Below are positions 25,501 through 28,500 of a DNA stretch of 64,000 nt, one piece after another. Both the position numbers and the translations under genes were made by a program. Origin of the DNA: Tubulanus polymorphus. Its lineage: Eukaryota; Nemertea; Palaeonemertea; Tubulaniformes; Tubulanidae. Position 1 is the first letter of the stretch; every line of letters begins with the position of its first letter. The notes under the pieces were generated by a model. That model did not search any database and had not been told where the DNA came from. It saw only the letters and a program-made list of their open reading frames with translations. Location of the stretch: positions 5,492,501 to 5,556,500 of the forward strand of contig NC_134028.1 in the NCBI RefSeq assembly GCF_964204645.1. The letters run 5' to 3'.

Positions 25501-28500
25501 CTACGTATAACTAAGTGTATTTTAGCGCCATCTGGTTTGTGCCGATACCCCATTGATGATAACATTTTTTGAAAAAACAAAATCATGGTCTTTACACCCT
25601 CGGTATGTTGAACATTTCTAGGCAATGTTCGCGAGCGCAATTCCCGAAATTACGGACATAATTGGCCAGCGTCAGAAATACGGCGGCTCTTACCATAACG
25701 GAAAGGGCAAGAAGTAAGTCGAGGATGATGAGGAATGGACGATCGTTGGATCCGACGGAAAATCGGCTCGCTTATATCTGTCGCTACTCGACAATCGCCA
25801 GTCTATCTCCGACGCGAAACTTGTCGCTGAACTTTGCTTTTCAAGTTCACTCTTAATAAAAAAAAGCGCTTCTCTCGAATCTTTACAAAACGCAATGATT
25901 GTAACGCTGAAATGAAGTCAAACATTCACATCATCGGTGACAAAGTACTGGACCCGGTTCCTCAGTTCTGAGTTGAGTTAACTTAGTTCATTTTCTATGT
26001 TTTAACTCAACAGTGAAATCTGAACACTGAACTGTGGAACTGGATCCTTATACAGTGAACTCTGCTTGCTTCGGATCTTGTTGGATTGATAATAGATTTT
26101 TTCAGAAGTAAGCAAATTATAGGGCAGTCTAAACAATGATTGGTCGCCAGCAATTTTGAACATTTTGCCAGGGGTAATTAATACGAGGCAATGGGCGTTT
26201 ACCTCTTAATTGATGAATTCTGTAATGAATGTTTGACTTCGTCCGCGTTTCAAATGTCAAATGCTTTATTCCAACGGCACGCGGGGGCAGTGCGCAGTCA
26301 ATACCTTTTGCACTGTTACTAGTCCCCCGAGTGAAGGAATACATTGCTATCTAAACTCAGACATATCATAACTAGTTCGTAATGATATGTCTGTATATAC
26401 AAACACGTATTTTTTCTTGAATTTGAATCTTTTATTTGCACCAGAAATTCCGAGTCTTGCATCGGAATGTTATATATATATATATATATACATCACCATG
26501 TTGCGCTGTATTCTAATAACTTTCGGCATCACTATCAATTATGTAATTATGGATTCTACTAATTTATTTATTTCGTGCATATTTACGTGTTAATACTTCC
26601 GCAGTGTGTTATTACCAGTGTCATTAAAGTATTTCCATTTTCATTCGATGTTCAATAAATGATAATTATTATTCTATTGCGACATCCATTTTGTGTTGCT
26701 TTCATTTCTAATTATCAAATTGACATTGACTCGCAGTGTAGATTTCCCTTGAGTAAAATTCCGTTTGAATTCAACAGTTGCGCCGCCGTTTGCGCGTATG
26801 AATAAATTGATACCTAATTTTGATGCAAGGCTCAAAATACTTAATAAATAATAAATTCTCATCAATGTATTTTATTCTAATTCTAATGCATTCTCTAGGT
26901 GACGTCCAAGCTTATCTATATTTGTATCTATAGTTGCGTTCACACTTGATTTGCGGTTTCTCGGAGGATTTCCTCAATTTTGTTGGGTGGACTAGTGAAT
27001 ATTGTCGATTTAGCAAACTGAGAGAGTGTAAAACTGACTTCAGCATATCCGGCAGTTTGGGGAAGCCAATTTTAGGTTAGATGCTGCACTAATTTGGCAC
27101 TGCATTCAAAAACACAATTTAGTGCCAATCTAACCCAGTAGCAAGTGCCGTATCTGGCCCATAGTTTTTGTGTCAATACTAAGCAGCACACCAAAACCGG
27201 GTGGCCACTGACCTGGAAAACTCAGAATTAGGAAATTTGGCAAATTTTATCAAAAAGTGGGAAAACTCTGGGAATTTAAAATTAGGACAGCACGTTCCTT
27301 TCACATTTCTTGATAAAATTGTAACATTTAAACCTAGAAATTTCCTCAATGCACTCAGGGTATTCTGTGTGATTACATGGAAAAATCAGGGAGAGCTTCT
27401 TGGATTTGTAAATAGGTGGAAAGTGGCCACCCTGACAAATATTCCAGTTCCATAAGAAAAGCCAGATTTGCTGTGAGGACGCAATTGTACACAGTACCGT
27501 AATTCACGTGTGAACGCAGATTCTCTATAAGCAGCACTGATGCGAAGGTGACCATACGTACGCACTCACGGCACAAACACTCGACTGCAAAAAAGCTCTA
27601 CAAACACTCTCAAACAACATTTGTCATTCTCTTCTCTCGACTTACAGGCCATGTTCGCTAAATTTGTGCCCGAGATTATCGATTTGCTCGGCGATCGGCG
27701 TAAATATGGCGGTAGTTTTCGCCAGGAAAGCGGTAAAAAGTAAGTCGGTTAATAACGCAGCATGGCATCTAATCCTCTTTCCTCGGATGGGTATTGTTAG
27801 TTTTTGCATTACGTGCACTATAGGACGAGGTTTAGGTATACTACTACTACTACTACTACTACTTGCATGGTTTTTAGAGTTTAGATTTTAGTGGCGTCTC
27901 AGTTGTCTCTCGGGTCCGTTTTCTTCACCTGTTTACACTATTTTCAGGCCATGTTTGCTAAAGCAATCCCGGAGATTATTGATATTATGGGACAAAGAAA
28001 GAAGTTTGGAGGTAGTTATAAAAAGGAGAGTGGGAAAAAGTGAGTAACCTCAGTGGTTCGATGTCGAGGAGCCCTTACCGAGACGTAGGGCGAGCTATAT
28101 ATATACGGATGAATATAATCATCGAAGATGTATTTTATTTTACTATGAATATTATCAAGTTTGTTGTCATCACGGCGTGTTTGCGAACTCTCTCCTCCCC
28201 GAAAAATCGTTGTGTTCTATTTTGTACACCTCCCTGATAACCAGTTACATAGTTATCAGGCGCATAAGCAATATGAGTAATATATATGTCTATTAATGTA
28301 TATATATGTCTTTGAAAAACAGCTCTCCAGGAAATCTTAGAAATATTCGAAAACTCATTATTAGCATATTCTGTCGTTATCTACGGAAGAAGATTCATCC
28401 CAGAAACGATATACATGTACTTCTTTCTCCGATAGATTTCTCGCTTCTAGTGTCTATGCATTCCCTACCTTCCTTAATTTAGATAATGCCTGAGCTTTTA

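What the first reader, a model, noticed from the sequence alone, without database searches (positions are those of the whole stretch)
25622..28039. Three tandem mutually exclusive exons at the S6-RCK1 gating linker of slo
Seen: three 92-nt exons (25622-25713, 27648-27739, 27948-28039), each with its own splice sites and identical phases, encode gapless variants of the same 31-residue block. Skipping all or using two shifts the frame; only one (or all three, 276 nt) keeps it. Known: this linker couples the calcium ring to the gate, and I recall a two-exon choice here in vertebrate Slo1. Inferred: the organism chooses between three gating linkers; differences cluster in the S6 tip (SAI/KFV/KAI) and the linker end (HNGK/RQES/KKES). 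A three-member set with 7b and 7c only 208 bases apart may be undescribed.
Basis: partly seen in the sequence, partly recalled or inferred. Interest (0 to 1): 0.8.

Follow-up and report, generated by a model that had tools for sequence, protein, structure and literature searches.

The report
Three-way exon choice in potassium-channel gate
In an animal from the large group that includes molluscs and annelid worms, a BK potassium-channel gene carries three interchangeable copies of the exon for the channel's gate and its link to the calcium sensor; two-way choices at this spot are known in mammals and implied in flies, so this looks like a three-way version of a known design.

Summary
Three 92-nt exons (25622-25713, 27648-27739, 27948-28039) lie between two constitutive exons of a Slo1 (BK channel) gene. 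Each has AG/GT splice sites and phases 0/2, and encodes a gapless variant of the block from just after the S6 glycine hinge (human A313) to the end of the C-linker (about K343). The blocks are 57-70% identical, their DNA differences favour third codon positions, and their flanks are unrelated: old copies kept as coding sequence. One statement is wrong: joining all three (276 nt) does not keep the frame; only exactly one does. Hox genes place the genome in the Lophotrochozoa. The kind is known: mouse/human Slo1 chooses between e9 and e9alt here, and a Drosophila cryo-EM construct implies two fly versions of the same block. What is new is three members in a lophotrochozoan, two of them (7b, 7c) with lysine at the pore-facing position where 7a, fly, Aplysia and human channels have serine (S317). 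Most likely this is a mutually exclusive cassette that picks one of three gate/linker settings. RNA use, the exclusion mechanism and independent origin are untested. Ten searches of open-licence papers listed no three-member set at this site.

The parts
21370..21540 (+). Constitutive upstream exon (pore helix, GYGD filter, first half of S6 up to the GG hinge); ends in phase 0
   Evidence: translation and splice sites; human alignment
25622..25713 (+). Alternative exon 7a: S317, T323, linker end HNGK
27648..27739 (+). Alternative exon 7b: K317, F318, V319, linker end RQES
27948..28039 (+). Alternative exon 7c: K317, A318, I319, linker end KKES
27740..27947 (+). 208-nt intron between 7b and 7c, with two GCATG motifs (27760-27764 and 27865-27869) and a TAC microsatellite; regulatory role not shown
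   Evidence: sequence; the count does not survive correction for 8 motifs in 5 regions
36238..36348 (+). Constitutive downstream exon (start of RCK1), entered in phase 2

Best explanation
A cluster of three tandem, mutually exclusive alternative exons in the Slo1 (BK) gene of a lophotrochozoan. A full-length channel can be made only from transcripts that take exactly one of them (shown from frame). The chosen exon supplies the inner half of S6 after the glycine hinge, the acidic ring at the pore mouth and the C-linker to RCK1, so the choice exchanges gate plus coupling linker as one cassette while voltage sensor, filter and calcium-binding ring stay the same (shown by alignment to characterised channels). 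Inferred: the isoforms differ in voltage and calcium set-point, and 7b/7c, with lysine at the pore-facing S317 position one helical turn above the acidic ring, differ from 7a in unitary conductance and/or resting openness. Transcripts with none, two or three copies are presumably removed by nonsense-mediated decay; how the splice choice itself is made is not shown.
For: Same length, splice-site type and phases in all three. Only single inclusion keeps the frame, 3 of 8 patterns. Differences by codon position 1/2/3 are 7/9/21, 4/6/25 and 9/5/17; excess at position 3 against one third has p 0.003, 5e-6 and 0.011. Gapless blocks with P320, E321, D324, R329, K331, G333 and G334 unchanged. The block aligns to human 313-343. 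S317 faces the inner pore and E321/E324 set up to half of outward conductance (PMC4319557, passages). The same block alternates in mouse (PMC11758846, passages) and, by inference, in fly.
Against: No RNA data of any kind. Exclusion could rest on frame and decay alone; no pairing or regulator signal was clear. The 7a and 7b acceptors score low on a matrix from this gene's own exons (5.5 and 5.7; 18 constitutive acceptors, mean 13.4, lowest 3.2) and the 7c donor is weak (5.2; 19 constitutive donors, mean 8.6, lowest 3.6): this fits regulated exons but could also mean poor use. Effects of K317 are extrapolated from neighbouring positions.
Confidence: 0.83

Rival explanations
1. Only one or two of the three exons are in real use; the others are relics, or are spliced in only to make non-functional transcripts that lower channel output.
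For: The 7a acceptor has 9 pyrimidines in 17 positions against 10-16 in the 18 constitutive exons compared; the 7b acceptor and 7c donor also score low. No RNA data.
Against: All three frames are open with complete AG/GT sites, and differences concentrate at third codon positions in every pair; a relic of this age should have decayed.
Confidence: 0.12
2. The choice descends from an exon pair already present in the common ancestor of insects, vertebrates and lophotrochozoans, rather than arising separately in this lineage.
For: The same block alternates in mouse and, by inference, fly. PMC4270693 reports alternative exons at one position in nematodes, arthropods and vertebrates, though I could not tell from the passages whether it is this exon.
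Against: The 30-column tree of 7 sequences supports no grouping (0 of 4 inner branches), so this is undecided. PMC9741552 cites Copley 2004 for apparently independent human and fly events in a calcium-activated potassium channel (passages; Copley not read). The diverged Slo1-like paralogue shows one exon here.
Confidence: 0.25
3. Exclusion is set by base pairing between intron elements (docking and selector sites) rather than by regulatory proteins or decay.
For: One inverted repeat of 15 nt within intron 2 (25914 and 26226) is longer than the best of 20 shuffles (14).
Against: It is 1 of 10 intron pairs tested, both arms lie in one intron, and the other 9 pairs stay within their shuffles (exact complementarity only, no G-U pairs). 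No related genome was available to test conservation.
Confidence: 0.1

Closest known systems
Vertebrate Slo1 (KCNMA1) exon e9/e9alt (Soom 2008, seen only as cited in PMC11758846 and PMC7371421)
   Same: A mutually exclusive choice at the S6-to-RCK1 linker of the same channel; in mouse constructs that also carried STREX, e9alt gave about a 50-mV leftward shift in zero calcium and less calcium sensitivity
   Different: Two exons, not three; the e9alt sequence was not seen here, so lysine at 317 and common descent could not be compared
Drosophila slowpoke alternatives at the same block (inferred from the construct in PMC8660915, PDB 7pxe)
   Same: 11 of the 13 listed changes from isoform J fall in residues 328-356, the same block; the solved chain bears the changed letter at all 11
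   Different: Two versions inferred, both with serine at 317; the paper calls them mutations, and the fly exon structure was not seen here
[quoted passage not shown]
   Same: Ancient, conservative tandem exons in channel genes with apparently repeated origins, KCNMA1/slo included
   Different: The passages seen treat human, fly and worm KCNMA1 orthologues; no lophotrochozoan slo set is mentioned in them

Membership tests
Slo1/BK channel alpha subunit | Closest to Slo1 over S0-S6 and RCK1, with K+ filter and calcium bowl | tested here: met
   Best solved matches are Aplysia Slo1 (1067 bits), fly slowpoke (1003) and human Slo1 (909); TVGYGD in exon 6; DQDDDDDPD at 54854-54979
Mutually exclusive exon cluster | Adjacent homologous exons with intact sites, equal length and phase | tested here: met
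Mutually exclusive exon cluster | Only single inclusion gives an open frame | tested here: met
   3 of 8 inclusion patterns open, the three single ones
Mutually exclusive exon cluster | Transcripts contain exactly one member and each is used | not testable with these tools
   no RNA data available
Mutually exclusive exon cluster | A mechanism that enforces exclusion at splicing | tested here: inconclusive
   pairing and motif searches gave no clear signal; 4 of the gaps listed (92, 130, 151, 189 nt) are shorter than the 208-nt intron, so simple crowding is unlikely
Vertebrate e9/e9alt and Drosophila slo choice | Same block of the protein is exchanged | tested here: met
   fly: (inference from the listed changes); mouse: linker position by PMC11758846 and PMC7371421, exact e9alt borders not seen
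Vertebrate e9/e9alt and Drosophila slo choice | Common descent of the individual alternative exons | tested here: inconclusive
   7 sequences, 30 columns, 0 of 4 inner branches supported; e9alt not included

The most novel reading that the evidence does not exclude
A lophotrochozoan independently built a three-position gate-and-linker switch at the exon where mammals (and, by inference, flies) have two-position ones. Two of its positions place a ring of four lysines in the inner pore directly above the acidic ring, giving BK channels with reduced outward conductance or calcium-independent opening; I met no description of a BK channel with such a natural basic ring in the passages I read.
Probability: 0.35. 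Interest if true: 0.6.

Novelty: new variant of a known kind. Interest (0 to 1): 0.42.

Why it matters
The exon carries part of the proposed hydrophobic gate, the conductance-setting acidic ring and the only covalent link between pore and calcium sensor. If alternatives at this exon arose repeatedly and here reached three, the same cassette has been varied in several lineages, and three gapless, same-length natural versions are ready chimeras for asking whether gate residues or linker residues set voltage, calcium and conductance behaviour. Lysine at S317 is a sharp, testable departure. It does not change the general picture of exon choice in ion channels.

Tried and rejected
Fourth copy: self-comparison of 22 coding pieces found no further S6-linker exon, and none of the other 19 pieces has a second copy at E below 0.01 (lowest E 0.025, a 15-residue match at 40690-40734, not followed up). 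A motif scan of both strands gave 5 places, 3 of them these exons. Exons between 39493 and 53553 (one is visible near 53340-53460) and after 56380 were not all mapped, so other splice choices there, and any alternative exon unlike the known ones, are untested.

Ten Hox-type genes on C6 (of 36 homeobox matches listed; 11 loci read) include ones I read as Lox5, Lox4 and Lox2 from recalled signature peptides. The phylum stays open: COX1 had no match, nor had the mollusc-type and arthropod-type haemocyanin models, whose controls did not ring, so those two say nothing.

Relatives elsewhere: bacterial/archaeal contigs gave 12 pattern matches and 0 relatives, viral contigs 0. I had no collection of animal genomes to search, so the spread among species is open.

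Intron pairing: 10 intron pairs, 20 shuffles each; one 15-nt repeat inside intron 2 exceeds its shuffles, the rest do not. Regulator motifs: 8 recalled patterns in 5 regions; two GCATG in the 208-nt intron is the main oddity and does not survive that many looks. TGCATG over the window is at chance (44 found, 36.3 expected, 13 of 100 shuffles reach it).

dN/dS: the NG86 routine returned no usable dS for any of the 3 pairs (dN 0.41, 0.25, 0.29), so no ratio is claimed. Exon tree: uninformative. Structure prediction was not run, since a single-chain model would not show the pore.

Literature: 10 searches listed no three-member set at this site. Soom 2008, Lagrutta 1994 and Copley 2004 were seen only as cited. 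The alternative region 4 of PMC4270693 could not be placed.

Full report
What is there. The window is G000:C4:5492501-5556500 of a 267.8-Mb genome in 77 contigs. It holds most of a Slo1/BK channel gene on the + strand, from a first coding exon at 4157 to an RCK2 exon ending at 56380; exons between 39493 and 53553 and after 56380 were not all mapped. They share AG/GT sites and phases and encode 30-residue blocks that agree at 17, 21 and 20 of 30 positions (a-b, a-c, b-c). Of 4 open 92-nt AG...GTRAG segments in the interval, 3 are these; tblastn among them gives E 1.3e-9 to 1.8e-12 in this window.

Frame. The block must be 2 mod 3. Of the 8 inclusion patterns only the three single ones translate through; none, any two and all three meet a stop 30, 267 and 195 nt past exon 6.

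Age and constraint. DNA identity is 53, 55 and 59 of 90 (a-b, a-c, b-c). Third codon positions carry 21 of 37, 25 of 35 and 17 of 31 differences (one-sided binomial against one third: 0.003, 5e-6, 0.011). No dS could be computed, so I give no dN/dS. The 150-nt flanks on either side are no more alike than shuffles in any of the 3 pairs. These are old copies kept as coding sequence, not a recent duplication or an assembly slip. Which two are closest is unclear: a-c agree best in protein, b-c in DNA, and b and c share K317.

Copies elsewhere in the genome. The only other close match (6 places in C1:6159733-6164487, of 26 matches listed) is a diverged Slo1-like gene; the remaining matches outside the window are 25-31% identical. 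Its exon at this place is single in the 9.9 kb fetched, 101 nt, entered in phase 0 with the same phase out, and reads GMFASFIPEL....

What the block does. It aligns to human A313-K343 (human sequence from memory; many of its letters are also printed in the papers below). The passages read place here: S6 after the glycine hinge, A313-E324 (PMC12416887); much of the proposed hydrophobic gate, about G310-P320, with V319 and I323 as key non-polar residues (PMC6109084); the pore-facing residues A313, A316 and S317 and the E321/E324 ring that gives up to half of outward conductance (PMC4319557); and the C-linker R329-K343, the only covalent link from pore to gating ring (PMC7371421). The exon is therefore a natural gate-plus-linker cassette. 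P320, E321, D324, R329, K331, G333 and G334 do not vary among the three; 14 of 30 columns do. The outstanding change is residue 317: serine in 7a, both fly versions, Aplysia, human and the paralogue, but lysine in 7b and 7c. Residue 323 is T in 7a and I in 7b/7c. The two linker tyrosines (332, 336) are Y/Y in 7a, Y/F in 7b and F/Y in 7c. Polar or charged residues at L312, A313, M314 and A316 were reported to give constitutively open channels (PMC4319557); carrying that over to K317 is my inference.

How the choice is made. Not shown. All sites look U2-type. Four other gaps in this gene (92, 130, 151, 189 nt) are shorter than the 208-nt 7b-7c intron, so crowding is an unlikely cause. Intron pairing and eight motif patterns gave no clear signal. 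Two GCATG motifs in the 208-nt intron are a lead only. 7a has the poorest pyrimidine tract (9 of 17, against 10-16 in 18 constitutive exons), 7b's acceptor also scores low, and 7c has the weakest donor of the three. This suits regulated use but does not prove it.

Which animal. Hox genes read as Lox5, Lox4 and Lox2 in one cluster (names from recalled peptides), and a Slo1 closer to Aplysia (1067 bits) than to fly (1003) or human (909), indicate a lophotrochozoan. The phylum is open.

What is known. A two-exon choice at this linker exists in mouse/human Slo1 (e9/e9alt; PMC11758846 and PMC7371421, passages; Soom 2008 itself not held). In mouse constructs that also carry STREX, e9alt gave about a 50-mV leftward shift in zero calcium and lower calcium sensitivity. 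For Drosophila, the cryo-EM paper lists 13 changes from isoform J, 11 of them in residues 328-356 (PMC8660915, passages). The deposited chain has the changed letter at all 11, and the cluster coincides with this exon, so I infer a second fly exon. PMC9741552 (passages) speaks of three tandem exon events in fly slo and of distinct events in human, fly and worm KCNMA1 orthologues. A nematode/arthropod/vertebrate alternative region in PMC4270693 (passages) may be this site or another. Ten searches of open-licence papers listed no three-member set here; subscription papers are mostly outside that library.

Verdict. Real, well formed, and best read as a three-member mutually exclusive cassette at a known alternative-splicing site: a new variant of a known kind. 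Interest is moderate and rests on the third member, the lophotrochozoan lineage and lysine at S317.

Noticed in passing
L001 (G000:C1:6155500-6165400), minus strand: A second, diverged Slo1-like gene whose gate-linker exon is single, 101 nt (L001 5395-5295) and three residues longer, with the same phase. Its identity to human Slo1 is roughly 35-60% exon by exon.
   Followed up: partly
G000:C6:5318228-5634756: A compact, one-strand cluster of ten Hox-type genes in about 316 kb, read as lophotrochozoan; a Cdx-like gene lies on C5 near 5608620 (names recalled).
   Followed up: partly
window 40690-40734: A 15-residue stretch 60% identical to part of the RCK1 exon at 37982-38134 (E 0.025), inside a later intron: chance or a decayed exon copy.
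   Followed up: no
window 25914-26240: A 15-nt perfect inverted repeat within the 7a-7b intron, slightly longer than any of 20 shuffles.
   Followed up: partly
window 27838-27869: A TAC microsatellite followed at once by TGCATG in the 208-nt intron between 7b and 7c.
   Followed up: partly
G000: No COX1 match in the assembly, so the mitochondrial genome may not be included (or is withheld).
   Followed up: no
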